The position numbers and the translations under genes are program-made. 64,000 bases of DNA from Catalimonadaceae bacterium JC749 (GTDB lineage: Bacteria > Bacteroidota > Bacteroidia > Cytophagales > Cyclobacteriaceae), in assembly GCA_021730635.1 (NCBI GenBank), contig JAJNNC010000015.1, positions 1 through 64,000 of the forward strand, read 5' to 3'. Below are positions 46,224 through 61,780 of the stretch, in pieces (position 1 is the first letter of the stretch; every line of letters starts with the position of its first letter). The notes below the pieces were generated by a model. It ran no database searches and was not told the origin of the DNA. It saw only the letters and a program-made list of their open reading frames with translations.

Positions 46224-47213
46224 CTAAACCACCGCAGCTTTATTGTACTTATTCTTGTATTCAAGAGGCGTTATACCCGTAATTTTTCTAAAAACCTCCC
46301 TAAAAGACTTGGTATTTGAATAACCCAACTCGTACATAACCTCTTTGACCGTTTTACGAGTGGTTTCAAATGCTTTTTTGGCGAATTCAACTTTTACTCT
46401 TTGTACATATTCAAGAGGCGTGTTGCCTGTTGCCTTTATAAATCTTCTATCAAAATTTCTTCTTCCAATGGCATATCTCAAGGAAAGTTCCTGAACAGAT
46501 AATTTATCATGCAAATTACCTTCGATAAATACCTGTGCTTGTTTGATCATTTCGTCGTCGTGCGTTTTCTGGCCGGCAAATATGGCAAAGATACTTTGGT
46601 TTTGCCTGTCAATTTCCACCTGGAAACTTTTGGAACAATAAATGGCCGTTGGCCTGCTGTAATATTTTTCAACGAGGTAAATAAGCAGGTTGAGAAAAGA
46701 ATACGCACCTCCATTTGTGTAAATTCCATTTTCATCAGTAATTAATCGTTCCGTTTTTAAATTTACCTGAGGGTATAATGTTTTGAAATTATTTACAGCC
46801 TGCCAATGTATTGAGCAGTTCTTGCCATCAAGCAAACCAGTGGAAGCAAGTAGATAAGCACCGGTACACATACTGGCTACCTCGGCCCCTTGTTTGTATT
46901 GTTTTTTTATCCACTCAATTAATTTCCTGTTTCCTGTCATGGTTTTTTCATACTCAAGTGCTACCGATGGAATAATGATCAGGTCTGTTTTTGCTATTTC
47001 TGAAATATTCCGGTGGGGTTTAAGTGTTAGCATTCCGCTGCTGAAATCGCTTTTTTTCGAAATCCCTGCAAGCTCTATTCTGAATACTTCTTCTTGTTTG
47101 TGTTCTTTATTGTATGCATTAGCTTCAACAAACATTTCATAAGTACCAATAATACATGCCACAGTGGTTAAGGTAGTTTGTTCTTCAGGAAGAAGCATAG
47201 TAAGATGTTTCAT
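46224..47213 (-). CDS. GlxA-family regulator: DJ-1/PfpI-like domain plus AraC DNA-binding domain
   Basis: 329-residue regulator. The N-terminal DJ-1/PfpI-like domain has the nucleophile-elbow-like MCTGAYLLASTGLLDGK, with a cysteine where the DJ-1 family has its conserved Cys, though GlxA proteins are thought not to be enzymes. The C-terminal AraC part has two helix-turn-helices: LSVQELSLRYAIGRRNFDRR and VKEVMYELGYSNTKSFREVF. The ATG at 47213 gives the proper domain start; the longer frame to 47327 adds 38 residues of unlikely text. It is divergent from the reductase gene with 182 bases between, so the reductase is a natural target. Composition is more A+T-rich than the surrounding genes. Confidence 0.9.
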   Translation of the reverse strand: MKHLTMLLPEEQTTLTTVACIIGTYEMFVEANAYNKEHKQEEVFRIELAGISKKSDFSSGMLTLKPHRNISEIAKTDLIIIPSVALEYEKTMTGNRKLIEWIKKQYKQGAEVASMCTGAYLLASTGLLDGKNCSIHWQAVNNFKTLYPQVNLKTERLITDENGIYTNGGAYSFLNLLIYLVEKYYSRPTAIYCSKSFQVEIDRQNQSIFAIFAGQKTHDDEMIKQAQVFIEGNLHDKLSVQELSLRYAIGRRNFDRRFIKATGNTPLEYVQRVKVEFAKKAFETTRKTVKEVMYELGYSNTKSFREVFRKITGITPLEYKNKYNKAAVV

Positions 47214-47395
47214 GGCCAATTTTTTTGTATGGAAAAAAAATAATTCACCCTGTCCAAAATAGTATATCAATATGTCTGATTTGCCTCCATGTTTAAAATT
47301 ATCTGGATAGTATCTTTGGCTTGTCATTATATAACTTAGTTACCACAAGTTTTTATGATAGTACTGGCAAACATTTTAAAACGAAAAAAAAAGGA

Positions 47396-47986
47396 ATGTC
47401 TAGATTAATTTCTGCAATGAAGATGTCGTTGGATGGAAAAATTTCCGGTCCTGACGGTAGTGATGCGGATTGGGTTAATGGCTGGTCCGATGACTATGGC
47501 CTGACAGAGCAGATCGATGCGTGCGTGATTGGCGGCTTGTATCCTGACTACGAGCAATACTGGACCAGGATACAACAGGAACCCGAAAAGATTCTTCACG
47601 AAACGAACAAAAAGCCAACGCCAGGCGAGGTTAAATGGGCCCGCTTTGCTGAACATACACCGCATTATGTTTTATCGAGCACCGTCAGTTCGGCTCTCTG
47701 GCCGTTGACGCGTTTTCTCCGAAGAACTGAAGATGTTGCAGATCTGAAGAAGCAGGGCGGCAAGGACATTTACCTCATTGGAGGCGCCCGCACTGTTGCC
47801 AGCTTAATTGATGCGGGATTGGTCGATGAGCTTCGTCTTATTGTTTACCCACTCATCGCTGGTGATGGAAGGGCACTCTTTGAAACAACCAAGCATCGTC
47901 AGCTGCTTAATCTGCGAGAAACACGTCAGCTTTCAGATGGGCGCGTTATGTTGATTTATGATATAAAGGCCACTACCAATTCTTAG
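47396..47986 (+). CDS. RibD C-terminal/dihydrofolate-reductase-family protein
   Basis: 196-residue reductase of the DHFR superfamily. Visible features are SRLISAMKMSLDGKISGPDG at the start (substrate and NADPH loop), DACVIGGLYPDYE, and KDIYLIGGARTVASLIDAGLVDELRLIVYPLIAGDG, the RibD_C hallmark. The end is SDGRVMLIYDI. Such stand-alone proteins may reduce pterins or other small carbonyl or imine compounds; the substrate is unknown. The ATG at 47396 follows AAGGA, a rare good Shine-Dalgarno here, and gives the correct N terminus; the longer frame from 47321 reads into the promoter. It is divergent from the AraC gene and upstream of a decayed SRPBCC gene, and clearly more G+C-rich than its neighbours. 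Confidence 0.88.
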   Translation: MSRLISAMKMSLDGKISGPDGSDADWVNGWSDDYGLTEQIDACVIGGLYPDYEQYWTRIQQEPEKILHETNKKPTPGEVKWARFAEHTPHYVLSSTVSSALWPLTRFLRRTEDVADLKKQGGKDIYLIGGARTVASLIDAGLVDELRLIVYPLIAGDGRALFETTKHRQLLNLRETRQLSDGRVMLIYDIKATTNS

Positions 47987-48424: not shown

Positions 48425-49711
48425 TTAAAGGATAAGACTCAGCAGTGACAGTCCCATGATGATATACATGGTCAGGCTTATTTTGTGAAACTGTAACAGC
48501 ATCATTTTGAGGATACCCCAGGAAAGAAAGCCGCAGGCCATACCGGTAGAAATGGAAAAACTTAAAGGCATCAAAATAATGGTAAAAATAGCCGGGATCG
48601 CTTCTTCATATTGTTCAAAATTTATCTCCTTGATCTGACTCACCATCAGAATACCCACGATGATCAAAGCGGGGGCTGTTGCATAGGCCGGTACAATGCT
48701 GATGAGGGGGATAAAGATCAGAGATACCAGAAATAGCAGACCGGTGACTACCGCGGTGAGTCCTGTTTTTCCTCCTTCTGCAATACCCGTGGCCGATTCA
48801 ATGTAGGCCGTCGTTGGCGAAGTGCCTATCAGGCTGCTAAGGATTGTAGCGATGGCATCTATGCTTAACATGCGGCTGATATGCCGGATCTTGCCATCCT
48901 TTTGTATGAGCCCTGCTTCCCGTGAACAGGCCATAAGGGTACCCAGCGTATCAAACATATCGATGTAGAGCAGGGCGAAAATAGATCCCAGCAGATTCCA
49001 GCGGAGTGCCCCCCAGATATCCAGCTTCAGCGCTACAGGCTCAATATTGATGTGGGCGGTAAAGATTCCCTGAGGTGCAGCAATCATGCCGAAGGCAGAA
49101 GCCAGCAAGGTTCCGAAAATGATCCCAATCAAAATGGCCCCCTTTACTTTTTTGATGAGTAAAAGGATGGTGACGAACAATACGCCCACACCAATCAAGA
49201 CAGGGGGCTCAAAAGCACCTAACATGACCAGCGTATTGGGATGGTCTACGATCACTCCCATATTCTGTAGACCGATAAACAGTAAAAACAGGCCGATACC
49301 CACCGAGATGGCCGAGATGATGGATCGTGGGATGGCATGAATGATTTTTTCTCTGGCCCCGACCAGGCTTAACAACAAAAAAGTAAGCCCTGCCCAAAAG
49401 ACAATCCCCAAAGCAGCCTGCCAGCTAACCCCATAGGTGATGACAATGGTATAGGTAAAAAAAGCATTCATACCCAGTCCGGGTGCCAGGGCGATCGGTA
49501 CATTGGCCGCTAAGCCCATCAGCATAGTAGACAAGGCAGAGATCAGACAGGTCACGGCAATCAGGGCCTCTTTGGGCATGCCAGCCCCTTCCAGGATAGA
49601 AGGGTTGACGAAGATAATATAGGCCATGGTCAGATAGGTTGTCAAACCGGCCACCAACTCTGTTCTGACAGACGAATGTCGATCTTTCAGCCGGAATAAT
49701 TTTTCAATCAT
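48425..49711 (-). CDS. NCS2-family purine permease, AzgA-like
   Basis: 428-residue inner-membrane transporter with about twelve to fourteen predicted helices. The N-terminal signature ELVAGLTTYLTMAYIIFVNP and NVPIALAPGLGMNAFFTYTI is characteristic of the AzgA/PbuG/GhxP group, which imports adenine, hypoxanthine or guanine with protons. Other family segments are SREAGLIQKDGKI, SLIGTSPTTAYIESATGIAEGGKTGL and NFEQYEEAIPA. The length is normal. It is the last gene of a minus-strand cluster containing adenosine deaminase, a NUP protein and a TonB receptor, which supports a purine-base substrate, probably hypoxanthine or adenine. The gap of 101 bases to the receptor gene holds GC-rich stem-loops but no purine riboswitch signature. 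Start ATG 49711. Confidence 0.92.
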   Translation of the reverse strand: MIEKLFRLKDRHSSVRTELVAGLTTYLTMAYIIFVNPSILEGAGMPKEALIAVTCLISALSTMLMGLAANVPIALAPGLGMNAFFTYTIVITYGVSWQAALGIVFWAGLTFLLLSLVGAREKIIHAIPRSIISAISVGIGLFLLFIGLQNMGVIVDHPNTLVMLGAFEPPVLIGVGVLFVTILLLIKKVKGAILIGIIFGTLLASAFGMIAAPQGIFTAHINIEPVALKLDIWGALRWNLLGSIFALLYIDMFDTLGTLMACSREAGLIQKDGKIRHISRMLSIDAIATILSSLIGTSPTTAYIESATGIAEGGKTGLTAVVTGLLFLVSLIFIPLISIVPAYATAPALIIVGILMVSQIKEINFEQYEEAIPAIFTIILMPLSFSISTGMACGFLSWGILKMMLLQFHKISLTMYIIMGLSLLSLIL

Positions 49712-49812
49712 ACCTAAAGTGGGTAAGTTGTGTCAACGCCCCCTGAAAATAAGGGCATTTCTTATAAAATACTATGCCATCAGGCAGGAGCCTGTGCGTT
49801 TCTCCCCCCAAT

Positions 49813-52800
49813 TTAAAACGTATATCTAAGCTCAAGCTGTCCTTGCCACAATGCACTGTTGATGCCGGATTCCAGAATATCCCAGGGGTCCTGATCACTG
49901 GGAGCCGAAAATGAAAAAGCAGGTGTGGTGCCATTTTCCAGCATACCCTGATAGGTCAGCAGACGATAGTTGGGATTGTTGAGCGTCCCTACAAAGTATC
50001 GGCGTCCCCAATCCCGGTTGAGCAGGTTGGCCACATTAAAAATGTTAAAACCAACTGTCAGGGTGTGACGCGTATCATTACCGGTGGTAATAAAAAAATC
50101 CTGGCTGGCTTTCAGGTCAAAAATACCTGAAAAAGGAAGTCTGTCGGCAAAGCGCTCGGCATAAGCCCCCCGGTGATTACGCAGGTAATCATTGCCTTCA
50201 ATAAAGGCATCCAGTGCCTGCCACATAGCCTGATGTTCGTTCTCCGATAAACGGACAACCTGGCCCTCTACAACTTCTCCGAAGACAATCTCATCGGAGG
50301 AAGCCGGTATATAGATCAGATTGCGGGCGGCACTGATCCCGGGGCTGAACACTTCGTTGTTTAGGGTGCCATTGTCATTGTAGACATAGGAAAAAGGAAT
50401 GCCCGATTGTCCGGTAAATACCAAAGAAAGACGGGTGGCCATAAAACCCAGGTACTCCTTGCTGAAATCAAGGCTGGCCACTACCCGGTGTCCCGCATCA
50501 TACAGGGATGTAGCAATGGTTGCATTGTTTCTACCATTGACCTGCTCCCGGTACACCCAGTTTTCATTGTTGATGAAACCCTCGCCATCGTACAGGGACT
50601 GGGCAGTGGTATAGGAGTAAGCCACTGTTCCACCGAAACCGTTTCTTGCCGGACGTGCAAGGGTCAGTGTGGTATTCCAGGTGTAGCCTTCACTGGTGTT
50701 GGATACAAAGGTGATATTGTTGTAGGTAGGATCGATTTTTCCCGCAGTATTAAAAAGCGGACGATTGTCCGGAGTGCCTGTCAGCTGCACCGTGGCAGGT
50801 TTGATATTTACATTCTGAATACGAATGTTGTTGATATTTTTGGTATAGGTCATCTCCGCAGAGGCGATCAACCCATAGGGCAACTGAACGTCTGCACCCA
50901 GGCTTGTTCTGAATACCTGTGGATATTTAAAATCTTCGGCATAGATATCTACATCGCCCGACGGTTTGGTAAGGTTGGTAGCCAGACTATCCCGCCATTG
51001 GGCAGGGTTCGCATAAAAAGGCTGGACACCCAGCGACAAACTGCTGGTCAGTCCGTTTCGGATATACATCCCTCCGGGCCATACCCAGGGAATACGGCTG
51101 GTGAAAATACCCAGTCCACCCCTGATCTGTACATTTTGCCGACCCGTCACATCCCAGTTAAACCCTACGCGTGGACTCCAGTGGATCAGGGTTTTAGGTA
51201 AGATGCCCGCCTGTGCCCCTTGCAGCTCATAGCCAAAACTCTCTATGAGTGGAATGGTCGTATTGTTAAAGCTGGTATTGATCTGGGGCGCATCATCCAG
51301 ATTCATGGGCAGATCAATCCTGAGTCCGGGCGATACTTTCAGCCGATCATTGAGGGCGATCTCATCCTGTATATAGAAGCCCAGCTGCAAGGCACGGAAA
51401 GTAGGGGCTAAATTATCGGCCTCATCACCCAATCGAACAGGATCGTTCAGGTTGGTAGGGAGTTCATGACCGAACAGGTAAAAGGCAGGGGCTCCGTTTA
51501 AAAACTGATCCAGACCGTCAGCGCCACTGTATTGGTATTGTGGGGTAGAGAAAATGGTAAAGAGGTTCAGTATTTTAAAAAACTCATTGTGTGTGCCCAG
51601 GGTGAGGGTATGAGCGCTCTGATAAAAAGTCAGGTTGTTGGTCAGAGTAAATACATCTTGGTTCACTATATTGGAATAGGAGAAATTATCCGTTCCGAAA
51701 ATGATGGTGGCATCTCCATCGCCCACCTGCACCTGTGGAAAAGGTTGTCCGATAATATCCCGGTCGTCCCGAACGGTGGTCAATCCCAGCGTCAGGTGAT
51801 TGGAAAAGTTGGAAGATACAATACTTCGCAGTTCCAGGGCGGTAGAGTTTGTCGTACTGGGAAAATAAACGCCTGAGTTACCAAAGTAAAGTGTATTGTT
51901 GTTGGGCCGGTTTCTGTTATAACTCACAGCTTTTACATAACTATGGCGTGCCGAAAGCTTGTGCTGCTGATTGATATTCCAGTCGATCTTTCCCAGAATT
52001 TTGGTGCCGTCCAGCTCACTGGCTTCATTCTGATATCCGCCCGGATCGTAGCCATACTGCTCGTTGAGCACTTCAATCAGCTGATTGATCTTGGTTTGAT
52101 CTGCATTTCCAACATAGTTGTTAAAGGAAAAGGGCAGGGGAGTCTGATCTTTCTGTAATTCTATATTGGTAAAGAAAAACAGTTTGTCTTTGACCAGGGG
52201 ACCACCTAGGCGGAAGCCATAGACATCGGAGGTAAAAGGCGCCAGCCGCTCGTCATCAGAGGGTTTATAACCAGCCAGTTTTTCGTTTCTATGCAGGAAA
52301 TAGGCAGATCCTTCAAAATAATTTTTGCCACTACGCGTCACAGCATTGATGCCAGCCCCCGCAAATCCTCCTTTGGTCACATCATAGGGTGAGGTGACCA
52401 CCTGTATCTGTTCCAGCGCATCAATGCTGATCGGTGAGATGCCGGTCTGTCCACCGTTGGTGCCGGAATAAGCCAGTCCGAAAACGTCATTATTAACGGC
52501 CCCATCAATATAAATAGCATTGAAGCGGTTGTTCATTCCCGCAAAGGAAATACCGGTGCCGTCGCCTCTTTGCACCAGGTTAGCCTGTGGCGTGAGCCGC
52601 ATATAATCGCTCAGGGAACGTCCGATGGTGGGCAGGTTTTCCAGTTGTTTTCGGTCAATAGTCGTGGAGGGGCCGGTCCGGTTTTCATCAAACACTTCCA
52701 GGGCTGTCACAGTGATCTCTGTCAGTTGCTGGGCTTCCTCCTGCAGGGCAATGTTGAGGGCATATCGCTGTCCGATTTGCAGGTAAATATCTTTCTGCTG

Positions 52801-53073
52801 ATGGGTCTGAAAGCCGACAAAAGAAAGAGTCACCGTATAAGGACCACCTACCTGTAGGTTGGGCAGGCGGAAATTTCCCTGATCATCGGTCACACTGCCG
52901 TAGGTGGTGCCGGTAGGTTGATGCACGGCCACTACCTGCGTACCGGTCAGCGCCCCTCCCAGGTCTTCCATCACCTTACCAACAATGGAAGCGGTAGTAA
53001 CACCCTGTCCCCAGGAAGAAACAGAGGAGGCAAGGAAAAAAACAACAATGATACCTTGTTGAAATCTACTCAT
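49813..53073 (-). CDS. Oar-like TonB-dependent receptor
   Basis: 1086-residue outer-membrane receptor, not a SusC. A signal peptide ending near SSWGQG is followed by a carboxypeptidase-regulatory-like domain (ASIVGKVMEDLGGALTGTQV to GFQTHQQKDIYLQ). The plug has ENRTGPSTTIDRKQLENLPT, AGMNNRFNAIYIDGAVNND and IQVVTSPYDVTKGGFAGAG. The barrel ends in QGQLELRYTF with a terminal aromatic. This form is like Oar of Myxococcus and the OmpA-related TonB receptors that take up peptides or small molecules without a SusD. No SusD gene is adjacent. It lies between the NUP and purine-permease genes, so nucleosides or bases are a plausible ligand by context only. A -7-like element is on its 5' side at 53115-53122. 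Confidence 0.92.
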   Translation of the reverse strand: MSRFQQGIIVVFFLASSVSSWGQGVTTASIVGKVMEDLGGALTGTQVVAVHQPTGTTYGSVTDDQGNFRLPNLQVGGPYTVTLSFVGFQTHQQKDIYLQIGQRYALNIALQEEAQQLTEITVTALEVFDENRTGPSTTIDRKQLENLPTIGRSLSDYMRLTPQANLVQRGDGTGISFAGMNNRFNAIYIDGAVNNDVFGLAYSGTNGGQTGISPISIDALEQIQVVTSPYDVTKGGFAGAGINAVTRSGKNYFEGSAYFLHRNEKLAGYKPSDDERLAPFTSDVYGFRLGGPLVKDKLFFFTNIELQKDQTPLPFSFNNYVGNADQTKINQLIEVLNEQYGYDPGGYQNEASELDGTKILGKIDWNINQQHKLSARHSYVKAVSYNRNRPNNNTLYFGNSGVYFPSTTNSTALELRSIVSSNFSNHLTLGLTTVRDDRDIIGQPFPQVQVGDGDATIIFGTDNFSYSNIVNQDVFTLTNNLTFYQSAHTLTLGTHNEFFKILNLFTIFSTPQYQYSGADGLDQFLNGAPAFYLFGHELPTNLNDPVRLGDEADNLAPTFRALQLGFYIQDEIALNDRLKVSPGLRIDLPMNLDDAPQINTSFNNTTIPLIESFGYELQGAQAGILPKTLIHWSPRVGFNWDVTGRQNVQIRGGLGIFTSRIPWVWPGGMYIRNGLTSSLSLGVQPFYANPAQWRDSLATNLTKPSGDVDIYAEDFKYPQVFRTSLGADVQLPYGLIASAEMTYTKNINNIRIQNVNIKPATVQLTGTPDNRPLFNTAGKIDPTYNNITFVSNTSEGYTWNTTLTLARPARNGFGGTVAYSYTTAQSLYDGEGFINNENWVYREQVNGRNNATIATSLYDAGHRVVASLDFSKEYLGFMATRLSLVFTGQSGIPFSYVYNDNGTLNNEVFSPGISAARNLIYIPASSDEIVFGEVVEGQVVRLSENEHQAMWQALDAFIEGNDYLRNHRGAYAERFADRLPFSGIFDLKASQDFFITTGNDTRHTLTVGFNIFNVANLLNRDWGRRYFVGTLNNPNYRLLTYQGMLENGTTPAFSFSAPSDQDPWDILESGINSALWQGQLELRYTF

Positions 53074-53114
53074 AAAGATTAGGGTTTAGTGGATGTGTAG
53101 CCTGTAAAGTTGAG

Positions 53115-53122
53115 CAAAAATA
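53115..53122 (-). promoter_or_regulatory. -7-like element before the TonB receptor gene
   Basis: Minus-strand TATTTTTG fits TAnnTTTG, 42 bases before the receptor ATG. No exact TTTG is present 19-21 bases upstream, so the receptor and permease may have their own promoter or may be read from the upstream genes. Confidence 0.35.
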
Positions 53123-53216
53123 TATTTTACTTAATTAATAATGAATAAAATTTTAATAAAGTTTTTTCGCTGAAAATGAGTATAAAATTTTATGTTTTGA
53201 TTATTTTTCAGTGAAT

Positions 53217-54320
53217 TCATATTCCTTTTCCTGGGAGCTGCATTTCATAGCGGTCCCAATGTTGCACCAGACTATCCACCACCACTTTGCCGATACGATA
53301 GGCAGCTTCCAGAGAGGGGAGGTATGCCGTGTATCCTTCCTCTTCCCCATGATCTTCACGGGTCAGACTCTGTACTGCCGAGATGGTGGGGTATTGCATC
53401 GTATAATTGCTGGCTGTCCGCAGGACCATCAGGCGGTTGATGTCTACCTTGCCAGCCTGATGTAGAAATTCCAGGGCTTGCCCTGTTCCGGTATCTTCCA
53501 TGGCAGAGGTGACAAAGTTTCCCTGGCCCCCTGACCAGTATGATACCCATTCATTGGCCCACTGATTGTAGTATTGTCCGTGCCAGTAGGTCATGGCAGC
53601 CAGGTGGTCTCCTTTCATCACTCGGGGCGGTTGTTGGGCTTCCGGGAATCCACTATATTTTGTGCGCATAGCCCTGATCTTCTCATTGTCTTCCAAAGCC
53701 ACTTCCTTGGTCAGATCATAAGCCCAGGCTACAAGCGCAGGATTCAGATGCATGGCATTGTTATAATCGTTTTCCAGCACAGGCATTTCATACGGCTTCG
53801 TTTTACTGAGGGGGATGTACCCGGTAGACCAGTCTTTAGGGATTTCTCTGGGGTCAATTTCATGGGCCAGGTCCCCATCGATCAACCATTCTGCCCATAC
53901 CGCAGAGCCTACACTGCCATCTTCCGGATCAATACCTGCAATCCCGGCGACCAACCAGTAGGCCTGGGTCAGATCAAAGCGGGGATCCATCCCCAAGGCC
54001 ATGATGGAAGCAGCCGACCGGGCGGTACCCATGCCTGTACAAATCCCTAAAACCTGTTTGTCGGGATCATAGCGCAGGTTTCTGTAGCCATGGGGAAAGG
54101 CTATCGTATCGGGAAAAGGAAATCGTTCTACCCAGTATTGAAATTCACCGGGGGAATCTTCCGTATCCTCTCCATTCTCAAACATGGTGACCACCACCAC
54201 CCGAACGGGTAAAGGAGTGGTTGTTTCATGGTTATTTTGTGATGCTGCCATTTCTGAGCTGCTGGACTGGCAACCCAGGATGAATAAGGCAAGACAGCAA
54301 ATAGGGAATAGTTTTCTCAT
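53217..54320 (-). CDS. NUP (purine nucleoside permease) family lipoprotein
   Basis: 367-residue protein. The signal peptide MRKLFPICCLALFILGC ends in a lipobox, so it is an envelope lipoprotein. The rest fits the NUP family (PF06516): VRVVVVTMFENGEDT opening, RYDPDKQVLGICTGMGTARSAASIMALG, YWLVAGIAGIDPEDGSVGSAVWAEW, SAMEDTGTGQALEFL and VLRTASNYTMQYPT. Although called permease, the sequence has no membrane helix besides the signal and resembles the nucleoside phosphorylase fold (GICTGMGT like the phosphate-binding GTGMG loops). It may therefore bind or split purine nucleosides in the periplasm or on the surface. The ATG at 54320 is preferred; the longer frame to 54452 would overlap the deaminase gene. 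Confidence 0.85.
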   Translation of the reverse strand: MRKLFPICCLALFILGCQSSSSEMAASQNNHETTTPLPVRVVVVTMFENGEDTEDSPGEFQYWVERFPFPDTIAFPHGYRNLRYDPDKQVLGICTGMGTARSAASIMALGMDPRFDLTQAYWLVAGIAGIDPEDGSVGSAVWAEWLIDGDLAHEIDPREIPKDWSTGYIPLSKTKPYEMPVLENDYNNAMHLNPALVAWAYDLTKEVALEDNEKIRAMRTKYSGFPEAQQPPRVMKGDHLAAMTYWHGQYYNQWANEWVSYWSGGQGNFVTSAMEDTGTGQALEFLHQAGKVDINRLMVLRTASNYTMQYPTISAVQSLTREDHGEEEGYTAYLPSLEAAYRIGKVVVDSLVQHWDRYEMQLPGKGI

Positions 54321-54363
54321 GCAAAGGGATAGGTTTTGTTTGTAAAGATTGTCCATGGGGTCG

Positions 54364-55950
54364 TTACTTTTTGAATGAATACACTTGGTTGAACTCCCGG
54401 ATAAAGTGTGTCCATTTCTCCTGCCACACGCCCAATGCTTTTTCTTTTTCATCCTCGTTTAAAAGACTATACTGAATGGAATTTATAGCCAGTTTTTTTA
54501 ACGACCTCAGGTCCAGCTCCCAGGCCAGGAAAATGCTCCAGTAATCCGGTGTGACACCCACATAATCAAAGATGGCCGGATCATCGGGACTGATAGAAAT
54601 CTGTATCCCCCGGTTGATCCAATGGTGAGCCGGATGCATTCTTAAATCCTGTATATAGCCTAATATCTGATTACTCAGGGGATTGACTTCAATACAGATG
54701 TTCTGGGTGCGCACTATTTCTTCCACCACCGGAAAAAAAGACAGGTTAAAACCATGCCCGATCCGGGTGGAGTGTAACAGTATGGCATCATACAGATTGG
54801 TCACATGTTGCCAGTCACTTTCCCCATCATGCAGGCAAAGGGGCATATCAATGCCGTAAATTTTTGTAAGTGAATCACGCATCAGCCAGGCATCCAGGTA
54901 ATAACGGGTAGGGTTTCCCGTATCTTCTTTGGCCACCAGGTCATATCCTTTCACCAAGTCCGGATACTTTTGTCGCACTTCATAAGCTTTTTTCAAATCC
55001 GCTTTCATCATGGCCAGCGGTTGAAAACGCAGATTGGTATAAATTAACTGAAGGGTAAAATTGGGTTCACTGCCGTTCCTTACCCTTTGTGCCGCCTGCT
55101 GAAGATAGTGGATGATAGAATCGTAGGGATAAGAACCGGCAGTATGCTCCAGATCATATAAGGTGCCTCCCAAAAAGGTTCGGAGCTCCACATGCTGTAC
55201 CCCATCAGCAACCAGAGAGTCGAAAATAGCGGTATACAGGTCTTCATAGACGGGTTGGTAGGAAGTAAAACCCTCAATGCGCTGAAAACAATTCTCAAAT
55301 TCTTTCCAGATATCTACTGAATCTTTGGTTACATCCTCCTCAAAAGTGAGCAGGTCATACAGCTGAGCCTCAAAAGATTCGATAGAATCGTGTAACACCT
55401 GTATAGGATAAAATCCATCGGGCACTTCCTCTTTGCTGAAAAAATGAATCTGCCCTTTTACATACTGTTCGTTGGGAGTTTGCCAGTAGACATAACAGTG
55501 AGGTTGCTGCAAGGCCCGTTGGATCATCCACCCGAAATGACCTCCCACAGCACCATGCAGATGATGGATACCCCCTTTCGGCATCTTCTTCAGGATGGCA
55601 AACAGTGGCGTAGTATACATGTGCGCTTTTGAGGAATAAAAGGATCGGGCAGGAGGGAAGAAATGAATGGAATCATAATGTGCCAGCATGTCCCTTCTCA
55701 AACGGATCAGTGTTTGGTTAGCAGTTTCTTCCGCCGCCGACAACTCCACAGAAGCATCAAAAGAAAGCAGACTATCGGCCGTAAGCAATTGCTGGTAATA
55801 TTGTTGATATTGCTGTGCATCCTGATAGGCATGCGGTAATTCGGGTGCGTCAACAGTAGGAGATAAAGATGGACTCTGTTGGACGTTGCAGGCTTGCAAC
55901 AAGGATACAGTAACCATCATGATCATGAAACGAAGACCAGGAGCATCCAT
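54364..55950 (-). CDS. Lipoprotein adenosine deaminase, ADGF/ADA2-like
   Basis: 528-residue deaminase. The signal with lipobox (VSLLQAC) makes it an exported lipoprotein, in contrast to cytoplasmic ADA. Zinc and catalytic segments are visible: KGGIHHLHGAVGG (first His pair, about residues 127-139), MPLCLHDGESDW (His and Asp/Glu), STRIGHGFNL, ICIEVNPLSNQIL and ISISPDDPAIF (zinc Asp pair). The long N-terminal region before the barrel and the HLHGAVGGHFGW motif resemble ADA2/ADGF rather than classical Add. It should turn adenosine or deoxyadenosine to inosine outside the cytoplasm. The frame is open from a GTG at 55974; the ATG at 55950 gives the better signal. The NUP gene lies 43 bases downstream. 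Confidence 0.9.
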   Translation of the reverse strand: MDAPGLRFMIMMVTVSLLQACNVQQSPSLSPTVDAPELPHAYQDAQQYQQYYQQLLTADSLLSFDASVELSAAEETANQTLIRLRRDMLAHYDSIHFFPPARSFYSSKAHMYTTPLFAILKKMPKGGIHHLHGAVGGHFGWMIQRALQQPHCYVYWQTPNEQYVKGQIHFFSKEEVPDGFYPIQVLHDSIESFEAQLYDLLTFEEDVTKDSVDIWKEFENCFQRIEGFTSYQPVYEDLYTAIFDSLVADGVQHVELRTFLGGTLYDLEHTAGSYPYDSIIHYLQQAAQRVRNGSEPNFTLQLIYTNLRFQPLAMMKADLKKAYEVRQKYPDLVKGYDLVAKEDTGNPTRYYLDAWLMRDSLTKIYGIDMPLCLHDGESDWQHVTNLYDAILLHSTRIGHGFNLSFFPVVEEIVRTQNICIEVNPLSNQILGYIQDLRMHPAHHWINRGIQISISPDDPAIFDYVGVTPDYWSIFLAWELDLRSLKKLAINSIQYSLLNEDEKEKALGVWQEKWTHFIREFNQVYSFKK

Positions 55951-56253
55951 GAAAAGCCTACCCTTTACTCTCACAATCGATGAATATTATTTTTTAGAGG
56001 TTGCAGTGTGACTCAAACAAAAGAATCGCGCCCAAATGTGGTTTAAATATAAAATAATTTGGTATATATCCAGTGTATATTACATGATATTTTGATAACA
56101 AATAATTTTTCCAAATAATATAGCAGGAGTATAGTATTTTTTGGATAGAAAGTATAAAGTTAACCCTGAGTAGCCAATGGCCCGGTTCAGAGCCAGTAAG
56201 CATCAGCTCACCCAGGGTTTACTGAAGAGAAATGCCAGGGATTTTTCTTCCTG

Positions 56254-57141: not shown

Positions 57142-58617
57142 TCAGAATTCGAGGGTGCCTACATCTCCACCCAAGGCTACCATCAGATCAATTGTACTCA
57201 GCAGTTGCTGTCCTAGCAGTTGAATGGATAATCTTTCAGCTTCCAGCACTATCCGCTGGGCATCCACCACTTCCAGGTAGGTGACCAGCCCCTTCAGATA
57301 GCGTTGCTGAGAAAGGGCAGCGGCTCGCTGCGCGGCTGTTAAAAATTCCTGTTGCGACAAAAGCTGTTCATGCAAACGTAACAGATTGGACATTTCTCTC
57401 TCCACTTCCTGATGCGCATTCAGCTCCTGTTGCTTCAATTGGTTGTTGACCCTCTCCAACTGGGCACGACCCAGTGCAACCTGTGCATTTCTTCTACCTC
57501 CTTCAAACAAAGGCACAGAAAGGGTGGCGCCTACCAGCCAGTTCCGGCTATCCCCTTCAAAGATTTGTTCCGACTGTCCGGCTAATAGGCCAGCGGACCC
57601 GTCAAGAAATAACCGGGGGTATCGCTCTTTCTGTATACTTTTCAATTGCTTTTCGAAGGCTCCTACCGAAGAAGTAGCCGCCTGAAGATCCGGTCTGCTG
57701 ATGGACAGGCCTACCTGGTTTCTTGGTCTGATCAAGGGTGCCAGGTATTGAATGCCTGCCGGTTCAACAGCAAATTCGCTGGCAGATTGTCCTGTCAACA
57801 GCGCGAGTGCCAGTTCAATTTCTGTTCTTTGTAACTGGTTATTTTTTAACTGTACGGCTACTGATGACAACTCTGTTTGGGCCCTTTGCAGGTCAATTTC
57901 GTTCGTCAGGCCCGCCTGATACCGGGTTCTGACAATTTCCAGATTTTCCTGCCGGGTTTGTATGGTGCGTTCCAGAATCTCGCTTTCAGAATCCAGGGTT
58001 AGGAGCCATACAAAATTTCTGGCTACTTCCGCAGCGATGGACAATCCTGACGCTTTCTGCAGCGCTGTAGCAGCCTGCCAGTTAAATTGAGAGGCGGCTA
58101 CATCATTCCTGATCCTGCCAAAAAGGTCTACTTCATAGGAAATATCTAACGGTAACACATAGGTATTATTCCGAATTCTCTGGGCAGGAATGTCAAAAGG
58201 GAGAGGCCGGTTGGCTGAAAACTCCTGGCGTATGAAAGAGGGGTTGAGACTCAGGGAGGGATACAGCAAAGATTTCTCCCACTGTACGCCTGCCCTGGAT
58301 TCTTCCACCCGATTTTCAGCAGCCTTCAGATCGTAGTTTTCTGCCATGGCAAGTTCCACCAACGTATTGAGCTTTTCATACCCAAAAATTTCCCACCAGG
58401 GTTGATCCTCCCTATTATTGGAAACAGGAGAAGCGGTGAGGGTATCATAGCCCAGGCTAATGGAAACAGGCTGGTAGGCTTCCTTCCACTTCCACTGCTC
58501 CTGGCTTGTTTCCCTTCCGATCGTATCTTCCTGGGCCAGTAGCAATGGGGTAGAAGAAACCAGTACCATGAAGACTATCATAAATTGAATGATTCTTTTC
58601 ATCTTACTGATTTGCAT
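57142..58617 (-). CDS. TolC-like outer-membrane channel of an RND efflux system (NodT family)
   Basis: 491-residue outer-membrane factor. The signal peptide (MIVFMVLVSSTPLLLAQ) has no lipobox, unlike OprM. Tandem alpha-helical barrel repeats are clear: LVELAMAENYDLKAAENRVEE in the first half and NQLKQQELNAHQEVEREMSN with the family closing YLKGLVTYLEVVDAQR in the second. LPLDISYEVDLFGRIRNDV is the membrane beta-strand section. It lies 10 bases downstream of the pump gene, so it forms a tripartite pump with the two preceding products. An alternative start is the Met at codon 6. Confidence 0.93.
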   Translation of the reverse strand: MQISKMKRIIQFMIVFMVLVSSTPLLLAQEDTIGRETSQEQWKWKEAYQPVSISLGYDTLTASPVSNNREDQPWWEIFGYEKLNTLVELAMAENYDLKAAENRVEESRAGVQWEKSLLYPSLSLNPSFIRQEFSANRPLPFDIPAQRIRNNTYVLPLDISYEVDLFGRIRNDVAASQFNWQAATALQKASGLSIAAEVARNFVWLLTLDSESEILERTIQTRQENLEIVRTRYQAGLTNEIDLQRAQTELSSVAVQLKNNQLQRTEIELALALLTGQSASEFAVEPAGIQYLAPLIRPRNQVGLSISRPDLQAATSSVGAFEKQLKSIQKERYPRLFLDGSAGLLAGQSEQIFEGDSRNWLVGATLSVPLFEGGRRNAQVALGRAQLERVNNQLKQQELNAHQEVEREMSNLLRLHEQLLSQQEFLTAAQRAAALSQQRYLKGLVTYLEVVDAQRIVLEAERLSIQLLGQQLLSTIDLMVALGGDVGTLEF

Positions 58618-58627
58618 TGTGGTTGAT

Positions 58628-61600
58628 TTAATTATTTTTTTGGCGAAGTCTGATCATGCCTAGTTTTCGACTCAAGACATAAAAGACAGGGGTGAACAAC
58701 AGCCCGAAAAGGGTGACGCCCAGCATCCCGCTGAACACAGCCACCCCTAGGGCCTGACGCATTTCAGCGCCTGCGCCTGAAGCGATTACCAAGGGTATCA
58801 CACCCAGGATAAAGGCAAACGAGGTCATTAAAATGGGTCTTAAACGAAGTTTGGCAGCTTCCGTGGCAGCATCCCAAAGGGCTTTGCCCTGATCCTCCAG
58901 TTGTTTGGCAAACTCTACAATTAGTATGGCGTTCTTGCTGGCCAGCCCGACCAAAACGATCAGTCCAATCTGGGTAAGGATATTGTTGTCCATACCGGCA
59001 AGATCAACACCCACCATGGCTGAGAACAAACACATGGGAACAATCAGGATCACAGCCAAAGGAAGTATCCAGCTTTCGTACTGGGCAGCCAGCAACAAGA
59101 AGACGAACAGTACCGCTAAACCGAAAGCGATGATGGCGGTATTGCCTGTCTGTTTTTGCTGATAAGCCAGTTCTGTCCATTCATAGGTAACACCTTCCGG
59201 CAGGATCTGATCGGCTAAATCCTCCATGGCAGCCAGGGCTTCTCCGGAACTGTTGCCCGGCGTTACATCGCCTACGATTTCTACTGCCGGATACAAATTG
59301 TATCGAGGGACCCTGGCAGGGCCTGCTATATCTTTGAAGGTGCCTAAAGTACCCATGGGCACCATGTCTCCAGCTTTGTTACGTACCCGGATACGCAGGA
59401 TATCATCCGGCGTGAGCCGGTATTGGGCATCGGCCTGTGCGGTCACCCTGAAGGTTCGACCCAGGTAATTGAAATCATTCACAAAAGCCGAACCCAGGTA
59501 AATTTCCATAGCATTGAAGACCTCCGGTACAGGGATACCCAACTTCTCCGCTCTCACACGGTCGATATCAAAATAAAGCTGTGGCGTACCAGTGTTGAAG
59601 AAGGAAAAGACATTGCTGACGGCAGGGTTCTGGTTAGCAGCTCCAGCCAGTTCATAGGCCGCATTTTTGATGGTTTCAAGGCCTGCATCACTTTGATCCT
59701 GTATCATCATTTTGAAGCCACCACCATTGCCGATCCCTTGCACCGGAGGAGGTGGAATGACTACCACAAACGCTTCTTCTATCTCTGACATTTTCTCGCG
59801 CATTGTCTGAAGCATATCGTCATAGCGAAGCCCCATTGCTTTGCGTTCTTCAAAGTCTTTGAGTACTGGGAAAATGGCTGCCGCATTGGAGGCGTTGGTA
59901 AAACTGGCGCCATCAAAACCGGCGAAGGCAACAGCATTTTCCACGCCCTCCATTTTCATCAACCGGTCTATCGCTTTTTGGATCACCGCGTCGGTTCTGG
60001 ATAATGAGGAACCGGGGGGCAGCTGAATGGCTACTATAAAATAGCCCTGATCCTGTGCCGGAATGAAACCGGTGGGTACCCGATTGAATTCCACGATGGT
60101 CAAAGCCATCAGCAGCAGATACACCAGGCCCATGGCCGTGCTATATTGTAAGAGCTTATGTACGACCTTACCATACTTTTCAGATAGCCAGTCCATCCCC
60201 TTGTCAAACTGTTTCATCAGTGCTTTCAGCGGATTTTTTCTATGGCTTCGAAGGCCCTCTGCGGCTTTGGGTTGATGAGGTCTCAGCAGTAAGGCGGCCA
60301 TGGCCGGACTCAGGGTTAAGGATACGAAAACGGAGATCAGGGTAGCCACAGAGATCGTAATGCCAAATTGGCGGTAAAATTCTCCTGAAATGCCCCCCAG
60401 AAAGGTGGTGGGAATAAATACGGCAGTCAGTACCAGCCCTATGGCGAGCAAGGCACCACCAACTTCATTCATGGTTTTGCGGGCTGCTTCCCGGACGCTC
60501 ATGCCCGATGCCAGGTTACGTTCCATATTTTCTACCACCACAATAGCATCGTCCACCACAATACCAATGGCCAGTACCAGTCCGAAGAGCGTCAGATTGT
60601 TGAGAGAAAATCCTAGGGCCTGCATCACCGCAAAAGTACCAATGAGGGAAACAGGGATCGCTAATATCGGAATGATGGTCGCTCTCCAGGTTTGCAAAAA
60701 GACCAGGATCACCAGAACGACCAATACAATGGCTTCAAAGATAGTGCGGACTACTTCATCCACCGACTCCTGTATAAACTCTGTCGGGTTGTAGACGATT
60801 TCGTAGGCAAGTCCGGTAGGAAAATCTTTCGCTAACTCTTTCATGGTAGCCTTGATTTCCTCCGCAGTCTCTAAGGCATTTGAACCGGGACGCTGATATA
60901 TTGGAAGGGCTACCGCTTTTTTATTGCCCAGATACCCTCGGGTAGAATAACTGGCGGTTCCCAGTTCTACTCTTCCGATATCTTTAACCCGAACAATGCG
61001 CCCGTCTTTTCCCGATTTGACAATGATATTTTCAAATTCTTCTATCTCTTGCAGACGGCCTTTGGTCTGTACGCTCAGTTCAAAGGCATTTTGCTGGTCG
61101 GTAGGAGGTTGGTTCAGGTTACCGCTGGCAATCTGTACATTTTGTGCACGCAGGGCCGCAAGAATTTCACCAGCCGATAAGTCCATAGAGGCAATCACAT
61201 CCGGATTAAGCCAGATACGCATAGAGTATTCACTGGAACCAAAGATGGCTGAATTCCCTACCCCTTCTATCCTGGCCAGCCTGTCTTTGATATGTAAGGT
61301 GGCATAGTTGCCAATATAGGTCTGATCATAGGTATCGTCCGGAGAGAACAGGTTGATAACAAACAACATGTCGGGAGAATTTTTCAGGGTCGTAACGCCC
61401 AGACGTCTGACCTGTTCGGGCAACCTGGGTTCTGCAACCCCCACCCGGTTTTGAACCAGTACCTGGGCTTCGTCCAGGTCGGTGCCTAACGCAAAAGTGA
61501 TGGTAAGCGTCATGACTCCATCGGCAGTCGATTGAGAAGACATATAGAGCATGTTTTCCACCCCGTTGATTTCCTGTTCCAGGGGAGTTGCTACGGTCTT

Positions 61601-61780
61601 GGAGATAGTTTCCGCACTGGCACCGGGATAGGCAGCAGTGACCACGATGGTAGGAGGCGCAACCTCAGGATATTGTGAGACTGGCAACGAAAAATAGGCC
61701 AGTCCCCCCACAATAATAATGAGGATTGAGATGACCGAAGCCAATATAGGCCGGTCAATAAATATATGGCTGAATTTCAT
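58628..61780 (-). CDS. RND efflux pump, AcrB/HAE1 type
   Basis: 1050-residue inner-membrane pump with twelve helices and two large periplasmic loops. Signatures are FIDRPILASVISILIIIVGG at the start, YPEVAPPTIVVTAAYPGASA, DDAIVVVENMER (the proton-relay Asp pair in helix 4), GISGEFYRQFGITI, and LRPILMTSFAFILGVIPLVI and GAGAEMRQALGVAVF in the second half. The length is typical of AcrB-like hydrophobe/drug pumps, not the heavy-metal CusA group, which is confirmed by the PxGxSLSRT pattern in loop 2. It lies 9 bases downstream of the adaptor gene. Substrate range unknown. Confidence 0.95.
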   Translation of the reverse strand: MKFSHIFIDRPILASVISILIIIVGGLAYFSLPVSQYPEVAPPTIVVTAAYPGASAETISKTVATPLEQEINGVENMLYMSSQSTADGVMTLTITFALGTDLDEAQVLVQNRVGVAEPRLPEQVRRLGVTTLKNSPDMLFVINLFSPDDTYDQTYIGNYATLHIKDRLARIEGVGNSAIFGSSEYSMRIWLNPDVIASMDLSAGEILAALRAQNVQIASGNLNQPPTDQQNAFELSVQTKGRLQEIEEFENIIVKSGKDGRIVRVKDIGRVELGTASYSTRGYLGNKKAVALPIYQRPGSNALETAEEIKATMKELAKDFPTGLAYEIVYNPTEFIQESVDEVVRTIFEAIVLVVLVILVFLQTWRATIIPILAIPVSLIGTFAVMQALGFSLNNLTLFGLVLAIGIVVDDAIVVVENMERNLASGMSVREAARKTMNEVGGALLAIGLVLTAVFIPTTFLGGISGEFYRQFGITISVATLISVFVSLTLSPAMAALLLRPHQPKAAEGLRSHRKNPLKALMKQFDKGMDWLSEKYGKVVHKLLQYSTAMGLVYLLLMALTIVEFNRVPTGFIPAQDQGYFIVAIQLPPGSSLSRTDAVIQKAIDRLMKMEGVENAVAFAGFDGASFTNASNAAAIFPVLKDFEERKAMGLRYDDMLQTMREKMSEIEEAFVVVIPPPPVQGIGNGGGFKMMIQDQSDAGLETIKNAAYELAGAANQNPAVSNVFSFFNTGTPQLYFDIDRVRAEKLGIPVPEVFNAMEIYLGSAFVNDFNYLGRTFRVTAQADAQYRLTPDDILRIRVRNKAGDMVPMGTLGTFKDIAGPARVPRYNLYPAVEIVGDVTPGNSSGEALAAMEDLADQILPEGVTYEWTELAYQQKQTGNTAIIAFGLAVLFVFLLLAAQYESWILPLAVILIVPMCLFSAMVGVDLAGMDNNILTQIGLIVLVGLASKNAILIVEFAKQLEDQGKALWDAATEAAKLRLRPILMTSFAFILGVIPLVIASGAGAEMRQALGVAVFSGMLGVTLFGLLFTPVFYVLSRKLGMIRLRQKNN

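What the first reader, a model, noticed from the sequence alone, without database searches (positions are those of the whole stretch)
48425..55950. Candidate extracytoplasmic purine-nucleoside scavenging locus
Four co-directional genes encode an ADA2/ADGF-like deaminase lipoprotein, a NUP-family lipoprotein, an Oar-like TonB-dependent receptor without SusD, and an AzgA-like base permease. The set suggests a full route: adenosine to inosine outside the cytoplasm, nucleoside binding or base release, outer-membrane passage, and base import. I know of no described locus with this exact composition in Bacteroidota. The receptor's role is inferred from position.
Basis: partly seen in the sequence, partly recalled or inferred. 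Interest (0 to 1): 0.8.

Follow-up and report, generated by a model that had tools for sequence, protein, structure and literature searches.

The report
Periplasmic purine nucleoside scavenging locus
Four neighbouring genes in a Bacteroidota bacterium look like a small assembly line that pulls purine nucleosides through the outer membrane, removes their ammonia, splits off the sugar and takes in the base; one of its enzymes has been filed under the misleading name 'permease'.

Summary
In detail: four minus-strand genes encode an ADGF/ADA2-type deaminase lipoprotein, a NUP lipoprotein, an Oar-like TonB receptor and an AzgA-type base permease. The neighbourhood is conserved. Of 148 family genomes, 13 of 14 with NUP carry a deaminase over 100 bits, 0 of 134 without. 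The 12 genomes with the best receptor scores are all NUP-positive. Hymenobacter crusticola has the same order. Some Verrucomicrobia and Proteobacteria show parallel sets with other TonB receptors. Two changes to the interpretation. NUP is probably no permease or binding protein: a confident model (pLDDT 90.7) matches MTA/SAH nucleosidases and shares their Met-Glu and Arg-x-x-Ser-Asn/Asp motifs; Asn in 80 of 84 suggests inosine/guanosine cleavage. And the lipoprotein N-termini are of periplasmic, not surface, type. Best order: receptor import, periplasmic deamination, periplasmic cleavage, AzgA import. Cargo, hydrolysis versus phosphorolysis, and all activities are untested; NUP stands without these partners in 27 of 36 Verrucomicrobia and 7 of 9 Acidobacteriota loci. 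A new variant of a known kind: TonB-linked nutrient scavenging.

The parts
54364..55974 (-). ADGF/ADA2-type adenosine (or adenylate) deaminase lipoprotein; start GTG 55974, ATG 55950 or later; lipobox LLQAC
   Evidence: H138, H140, H382, E385, H407, D464, D465 invariant in 11 sequences (their metal/catalytic roles recalled)
53217..54320 (-). NUP (PF06516) lipoprotein, predicted periplasmic nucleosidase of the purine/uridine phosphorylase superfamily; lipobox LGC
49813..53073 (-). Oar-like TonB-dependent receptor (CarboxypepD_reg + Plug + barrel), no SusD partner
48425..49711 (-). AzgA/AZG-type purine base permease, inner membrane
55951..56253 (-). upstream region, presumed promoter of the deaminase-NUP pair
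   Evidence: inference from layout; no site established
53074..53216 (-). AT-rich gap between NUP and receptor, possible second promoter
   Evidence: sequence; inference

Best explanation
A TonB-linked, periplasmic purine-nucleoside salvage line. The Oar-like receptor brings nucleosides, or a nucleoside-bearing compound, through the outer membrane. In the periplasm, anchored to the outer membrane, the ADGF-type deaminase turns adenosine (and probably deoxyadenosine) into inosine plus ammonia. NUP, a nucleosidase of the PNP/MTAN superfamily with an Asn base-binding signature, splits inosine and guanosine into hypoxanthine or guanine plus ribose, more likely by hydrolysis than by phosphorolysis. 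AzgA imports the base across the inner membrane for phosphoribosyl salvage or as nitrogen. Shown by computation: families, conserved residues, fold, co-occurrence, N-terminal type. Inferred: substrates, reaction type, receptor cargo, order.
For: Co-occurrence in 148 family genomes: deaminase over 100 bits in 13 of 14 NUP+ and 0 of 134 NUP- genomes, Fisher p 9e-18, relatedness not corrected. Receptor: the 12 best-scoring genomes of 148, own included, are all NUP+, as are the 8 best genera of 84, including a case where it is unlinked (G094). All four genes within one stretch in the window, L042, L057 (same record as L031), L058, L034, L035, L036; the window's order in L042. Parallel sets: TonB receptor + adenine deaminase + distant adenosine deaminase + AzgA + double NUP in Verrucomicrobia L063, L074, L077; TonB receptor + deaminase + NUP in Gammaproteobacteria L113, L118, L119; L113 also has a phosphoribosyltransferase and a Xan_ur permease. 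Swap: NUP-less G314 has Oar-type receptor, deaminase, DeoD phosphorylase and nucleoside permease TIGR00889 together. Spirosoma NUP lies within 3.2 kb of a nucleoside hydrolase PF01156 in 6 of 7 loci. Fold: pLDDT 90.7; the 50 PDB hits listed (of 734) are all of this superfamily, 49 of them MTA/SAH or futalosine nucleosidases, best E 1.5e-11. Motif: E275, R301, S304 in 84 of 84, N305 in 80, D in 4. Periplasmic type: two or more acidic residues at +2..+7 in 27/27 SusD, 1/26 BamD, 2/13 deaminase, 1/21 NUP (proteins without a recognised lipobox dropped).
Against: No activity is measured here. Profile comparison of NUP with MTAN or DeoD-like sets is weak (probability 1.2% and 0.3%), and a PDB profile search found nothing at E up to 10; the nucleosidase claim rests on fold and motif. 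NUP's invariant E48 is, by eye, one residue out of register with the catalytic Glu of MTAN (its place recalled). NUP stands without these partners in 27 of 36 Verrucomicrobia and 7 of 9 Acidobacteriota loci, some on short contigs. Receptor homologs up to 1047 bits occur in NUP-negative genomes, and only five candidates per genome were scored. Three genomes of other families have the deaminase (286-319 bits) without NUP. Candida NUP is reported as a transporter (PMC9431476, passages). The residue after HxH, Asp in ADA2, varies (G/D/P/A/S), so the deaminase substrate is open. The host also has Nuc_H_symport permeases elsewhere (427.6 and 81.2 bits), so nucleosides may enter whole.
Confidence: 0.6

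Rival explanations
1. One reading: the deaminase and NUP sit on the outer face, process nucleosides outside, NUP binds substrate or frees base, and the receptor passes products in.
For: Both are lipoproteins and surface lipoproteins beside TonB receptors are common in Bacteroidota (recalled). 2 of 13 deaminases and 1 of 21 NUPs have two or more acidic residues at +2..+7.
Against: That acidic signal is present in 27 of 27 SusDs of the same genome and missing from 11 of 13 deaminases and 20 of 21 NUPs. Several homologs seem to have plain signal peptides, and the Pelagicoccus deaminase a twin-arginine motif (read by eye).
Confidence: 0.15
2. The same topology but another main substrate: AMP or other adenylates, methylthioadenosine, or adenine nucleosides generally, with NUP acting as an MTA-type nucleosidase.
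For: Closest solved relative is an AMP-preferring ADGF (PMC10358891, abstract and part 1 of 2 of Results read). Top fold hits are MTA/SAH nucleosidases. The position after HxH differs from ADA2.
Against: Asn at the base-binding motif in 80 of 84 NUPs; in calf and human PNP the N243D change adds adenosine to inosine and guanosine (PMC6274182, passages), which points to 6-oxopurines if the positions correspond. A deaminase beside the nucleosidase also makes best sense for inosine.
Confidence: 0.15
3. The locus detoxifies or silences extracellular adenosine or nucleoside antibiotics rather than feeding on purines.
For: ADGFs change extracellular adenosine levels in animals (PMC10358891, abstract). 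The locus is sporadic and seems to have spread horizontally.
Against: Base permeases, a phosphoribosyltransferase, DeoD, nucleoside permeases and a transaldolase around the same core point to nutrition.
Confidence: 0.07
4. Only the deaminase-NUP pair is a unit; the receptor and AzgA are incidental neighbours.
For: In the 25 Bacteroidota loci the receptor is near in 8 and AzgA in 10, the deaminase in 15; AT-rich gap before the receptor.
Against: The receptor ortholog tracks NUP also when unlinked; AzgA of two clades is found next to NUP; other phyla repeat the pattern with other receptors.
Confidence: 0.05

Closest known systems
ADGF / ADA2 secreted adenosine deaminases (TIGR01431, human ADA2, Helix pomatia AMP deaminase)
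   Same: Near full-length match with the conserved His, Glu and Asp residues kept
   Different: Bacterial, lipid-anchored, just under the TIGR01431 cut-off; position after HxH not kept; sits in a salvage locus
MTA/SAH nucleosidase and futalosine hydrolase (purine and uridine phosphorylase superfamily), including a periplasmic MTAN among the fold hits (5b7q)
   Same: Fold and the M-E ... R-x-x-S-N/D motif
   Different: About 100 residues longer, lipoprotein, Asn instead of Asp in most, negligible sequence similarity
Candida albicans NUP, 'purine nucleoside permease', PF06516
   Same: Same family name and, by recall, the same Pfam family; NUP is already placed in the PUP superfamily in print (PMC9815663, one passage)
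   Different: Reported as a transporter in yeast (PMC9431476, passages); here a secreted protein with a soluble enzyme fold
Bacteroides thetaiotaomicron ribose utilisation system (rus), with SusCD-like proteins and a nucleoside hydrolase (recalled; search did not list it)
   Same: TonB-linked use of nucleosides in Bacteroidota
   Different: Rus uses a SusC/SusD pair and harvests ribose; here no SusD, a deaminase, a PNP-fold NUP and a base permease
AzgA/AZG purine permeases (AZG1, AZG2)
   Same: Strong sequence match
   Different: Tied to periplasmic nucleoside cleavage

Membership tests
ADGF/ADA2 deaminases | full-length TIGR01431 match above cut-off | tested here: not met
   306.3 bits against 315 for the window protein, positions 2-477 of 479; 10 of 148 family genomes are above
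ADGF/ADA2 deaminases | metal-binding and catalytic residues (roles recalled) | tested here: met
   H138, H140, H382, E385, H407, D464, D465 invariant in 11 sequences; aligned with ADA2
ADGF/ADA2 deaminases | secreted | tested here: met
   signal peptide and lipobox by pattern only
ADGF/ADA2 deaminases | deamination of adenosine | not testable with these tools
   needs an assay
NUP (PF06516) | Pfam match above gathering score | tested here: met
   380.8 bits against 27
membrane permease | several transmembrane helices | tested here: not met
   the model is an alpha/beta enzyme fold with a helix 5-16 in the signal peptide; no transmembrane predictor was run
purine and uridine phosphorylase superfamily | fold | tested here: met
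   the 50 listed PDB matches belong to it, best E 1.5e-11, TM to target 0.56-0.79
purine and uridine phosphorylase superfamily | sequence-profile similarity | tested here: not met
   hhalign probability 1.2% and 0.3%; no PDB profile hit
purine and uridine phosphorylase superfamily | ribose- and base-binding motif M-E ... R-x-x-S-[ND] | tested here: met
   compared by eye with MTANs; no structural superposition
DeoD-type phosphorylases | G-D-P-x-R phosphate loop (role recalled) | tested here: not met
   invariant in the 7 DeoD-like sequences of A5, absent from NUP
TonB-dependent receptors, Oar-like | CarboxypepD_reg, plug and barrel domains | tested here: met
SusCD nutrient loci | SusD-family surface lipoprotein beside the receptor | tested here: not met
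   none among the four genes or the neighbours scanned; nearest PF07980 matches on the contig at 7071-7859 and 70034-70420
AzgA-type permeases | family match | tested here: met
   PF00860; AZG1 E 1.6e-72
AzgA-type permeases | hypoxanthine, guanine or adenine transport | not testable with these tools
   needs uptake assay

The most novel reading that the evidence does not exclude
NUP proteins are a neglected class of secreted, Asn-type purine nucleosidases misnamed as permeases, and together with an ADGF deaminase, a dedicated SusD-less TonB receptor and a base permease they form a mobile periplasmic nucleoside-to-base line put together repeatedly in several phyla; its receptor would be among the first TonB transporters dedicated to nucleosides.
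Probability: 0.45. Interest if true: 0.65.

Novelty: new variant of a known kind. Interest (0 to 1): 0.52.

Why it matters
It offers a testable function for a protein family annotated as a permease. It separates two ways of salvaging purine nucleosides, cleaving in the periplasm and importing the base, or importing the nucleoside and cleaving inside, and finds both wirings around the same kind of deaminase and receptor. It also gives a substrate hypothesis for one branch of the large Oar-like receptor family.

Tried and rejected
A first NUP model from 12 sequences was poor (pLDDT 59.4) and was not used; the 84-sequence model replaced it. A PDB sequence search with NUP alone and with the profile found nothing. 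HHalign of NUP with MTAN and DeoD-like sets was weak. PHROGs gave nothing for NUP. The sigma-70 scan was hard to use (22 promoter-like sites against 12.8 expected, terminator-like 9 against 9.0), and a Bacteroidota-type pattern gave no hit in the four intergenic regions. Recurrent neighbour clusters in Opitutae looked by eye like unrelated conserved genes or antisense frames. Paralogs of the receptor near deoC-like and pur-like genes are noted, not counted. Literature: of the ten searches those were aimed at such a gene set and listed no description of it; the library lacks most subscription papers, so this is no proof of absence.

The idea that loss of the Asp after HxH marks an AMP enzyme was dropped, because the AMP-preferring Helix enzyme keeps the Asp.

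Full report
WHAT IS THERE. Four genes lie head to tail on the minus strand. The deaminase (54364-55974) matches Pfam A_deaminase, AMP_deaminase and A_deaminase_N and TIGR01431, the ADGF model, along nearly its whole length but at 306.3 bits against a cut-off of 315. Its closest solved relatives are the Helix pomatia AMP deaminase and human ADA2. NUP's open frame begins at 54452, but the signal peptide and lipobox indicate a start at 54320. It is followed by an Oar-like TonB receptor and an AzgA-type permease. Gaps are 43, 143 and 101 bp; the 143 bp gap is AT-rich, so one transcript is possible but not shown.

IS IT CONSERVED? NUP is rare: 14 of 148 genomes of the family and only the window's own among 395 sampled across the phylum. 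A deaminase over 100 bits was found in 13 of those 14 and in none of the other 134 (Fisher p 9e-18, not corrected for relatedness). Five NUP-negative genomes have weak matches of 41-66 bits; the fourteenth NUP-positive one, G166, is a fragmented genome with a weak deaminase match and a partial NUP next to a partial AzgA. In the phylum sample three genomes of other families have a strong deaminase (286-319 bits) without NUP. I fetched 14 stretches around 14 of the 23 deaminase matches. In 11 of the 14 NUP follows the deaminase (in L037 the deaminase is cut by the contig end), with a 199- or 134-residue frame between them in L030 and L033; AzgA is in 8 of the 11 and the receptor in 6. The other 3 hold only weak deaminases (29-32 bits).

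ACROSS PHYLA. A scan of genome contigs gave 80 loci (the best of 197). Of 25 Bacteroidota loci, 15 have the deaminase, 10 AzgA and 8 the receptor in the stretch; 6 of 7 Spirosoma loci have a nucleoside hydrolase within 3.2 kb instead (PF01156 confirmed for L050, the others by similarity to it); L047, L056, L065 and L081 have none, two of them on contigs of 4.4 and 5.1 kb. Hymenobacter crusticola (L042) has deaminase, NUP, receptor and permease in the window's order, preceded by a nucleoside H+ symporter. Outside Bacteroidota, Verrucomicrobia L063, L074 and L077 have a TonB receptor or plug protein, adenine deaminase, a distant adenosine deaminase, AzgA and a double NUP; Aestuariicella (L113) and two Microbulbifer (L118, L119) have TonB receptor, deaminase and NUP in line; L113 adds a Pfam-confirmed phosphoribosyltransferase, a second one similar by eye, and a Xan_ur permease; Sphingomonas L116 has two NUPs, an Oar-type receptor (311 bits), a phosphoribosyltransferase and a weak deaminase match. 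Pfam was run on L050, L063, L113, L116 and L118 proteins only; the rest rests on similarity to these. Against this, 27 of 36 Verrucomicrobia and 7 of 9 Acidobacteriota loci show none of the families I looked for, some on short contigs. NUP can work alone or in other settings.

THE RECEPTOR. In a search of the same 148 genomes with the window's receptor (five candidates scored per genome), the 12 highest-scoring genomes, own included, are all NUP-positive, and the 8 highest genera of 84 are the 8 that have NUP. Of the remaining two NUP-positive genomes, G080 has pieces at 46-48% identity, and G131 two pieces at 52-53% on separate contigs plus a full-length homolog at 41%. In G094 the ortholog (1157 bits) is unlinked from the NUP cluster. 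G001, the same genus without NUP, has no match above 36 bits with all candidates scored. Homologs of 900-1047 bits do occur in NUP-negative genomes, so the family as a whole serves more than this system. In the trees (37 NUP, 26 deaminase, 19 AzgA and 18 receptor sequences chosen from those fetched; midpoint rooted, support not shown) the window's NUP and deaminase group with Rhodocytophaga, Pontibacter and Hymenobacter, away from the other family members; its AzgA groups with Hymenobacter and with one family member (L053, same record as G073); its receptor is sister to that of Rhodocytophaga (75% identity). This suggests horizontal spread. The receptors of Hymenobacter and Pontibacter form a separate branch, so receptors seem to have been recruited more than once.

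A NATURAL SWAP. G314, from another family and without NUP, has an Oar-type receptor, a weak Lactamase_B-type protein, the ADGF deaminase, a DeoD-type purine nucleoside phosphorylase (above cut-off), a nucleoside permease (TIGR00889, above cut-off) and a transaldolase in a row. Where NUP is missing, a phosphorylase without the NUP-type lipobox region plus a nucleoside permease stands in the place that NUP plus base permease holds in the window. This is one case, but it says what NUP should do. The window's genome has nucleoside H+ symporters elsewhere too, so the routes need not exclude each other.

WHAT NUP IS. With 84 sequences the model has mean pLDDT 90.7 and pTM 0.88. The 50 PDB matches listed, of 734, belong to the purine and uridine phosphorylase superfamily; 49 are MTA/SAH or futalosine nucleosidases and one is a uridine phosphorylase. 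The motif M274-E275 (E in 84 of 84) followed by R301-x-x-S304-N305 (R and S in 84 of 84; N in 80, D in 4) matches M-E and R-S-x-S-D of the MTANs of related genomes. In calf and human PNP, the N243D mutant cleaves adenosine as well as inosine and guanosine (PMC6274182, passages read); if N305 is the counterpart of Asn243, NUP prefers the product of the deaminase. That NUP belongs to this superfamily is already in print (PMC9815663, one passage read), and a cyanobacterial 'purine nucleoside permease' appears, with 'None' in what seems the membrane-segment column, in a table of a thylakoid-lumen proximity study (PMC7880944, one passage read). The G-D-P-x-R loop of DeoD enzymes is absent, which favours hydrolysis; this is inference. 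Sequence-profile comparison gave no support by itself.

WHERE IT HAPPENS. In Bacteroidota, acidic residues just after the lipid-bearing cysteine mark surface lipoproteins (recalled). I tested this on controls: of 30 SusDs fetched (of 58 matches) from the window's genome, 27 had a recognised lipobox and 27 of 27 had at least two acidic residues at +2..+7; of 29 BamD (periplasmic, recalled) from relatives, 26 had one and 1 of 26 did; of 22 deaminases 13 and 2 of 13; of 33 NUPs 21 and 1 of 21 (proteins without a recognised lipobox, 3, 3, 9 and 12, were dropped). Several homologs seem to have plain signal peptides, and the Pelagicoccus deaminase carries a twin-arginine motif near its start (by eye). 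So both proteins are most likely periplasmic, and the receptor comes first.

MECHANISM. Receptor import, deamination of adenosine to inosine, cleavage of inosine and guanosine to base plus ribose, base uptake by AzgA. Families, residues, fold and co-occurrence are shown by computation; substrates, reaction type, cargo and order are inferred. The position after HxH varies in the bacterial deaminases, so AMP or deoxyadenosine cannot be excluded.

VERDICT. Novelty lies in the combination and in the reading of NUP, not in a new kind of system.

Noticed in passing
L063:8885-10972, L074:8834-10972, L077:8799-10829, L108:3455-5566, L103:1-2016: Two NUP domains fused head to tail in Verrucomicrobia; both halves keep the M-E and R-x-x-S-N motifs.
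   Followed up: partly
L066:673-4051: Three tandem NUP genes; the M-E pattern was not found in the middle copy.
   Followed up: no
L045-L051 (Spirosoma): NUP lies within 3.2 kb of a nucleoside hydrolase-type gene in 6 of 7 loci, and in 4 of them a gene that reads by eye like a DJ-1/AraC-type regulator lies nearby.
   Followed up: partly
L245:2711-9521: A genome of another family without NUP has the ADGF deaminase divergent from a SusC/SusD-like pair.
   Followed up: no
L163:4199-10890: The unlinked receptor ortholog of G094 lies near genes that read like purK and purE (names by eye).
   Followed up: no
L165:6314-11390: A paralog of the receptor in G064 lies near a DeoC-family aldolase.
   Followed up: no
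L099, L101, L107, L111: Four Acidobacteriota NUPs carry Asp instead of Asn at position 305; they may accept adenosine.
   Followed up: no
window 46224-47327 and 47321-47986: An AraC-type regulator with a DJ-1/PfpI domain and a RibD_C-type reductase on the other strand lie just downstream of AzgA; no link shown.
   Followed up: no
window 57142-61780: An outer-membrane efflux channel (TIGR01845, 261 bits) and a 1050-residue protein that reads by eye like an RND pump lie upstream of the locus.
   Followed up: no
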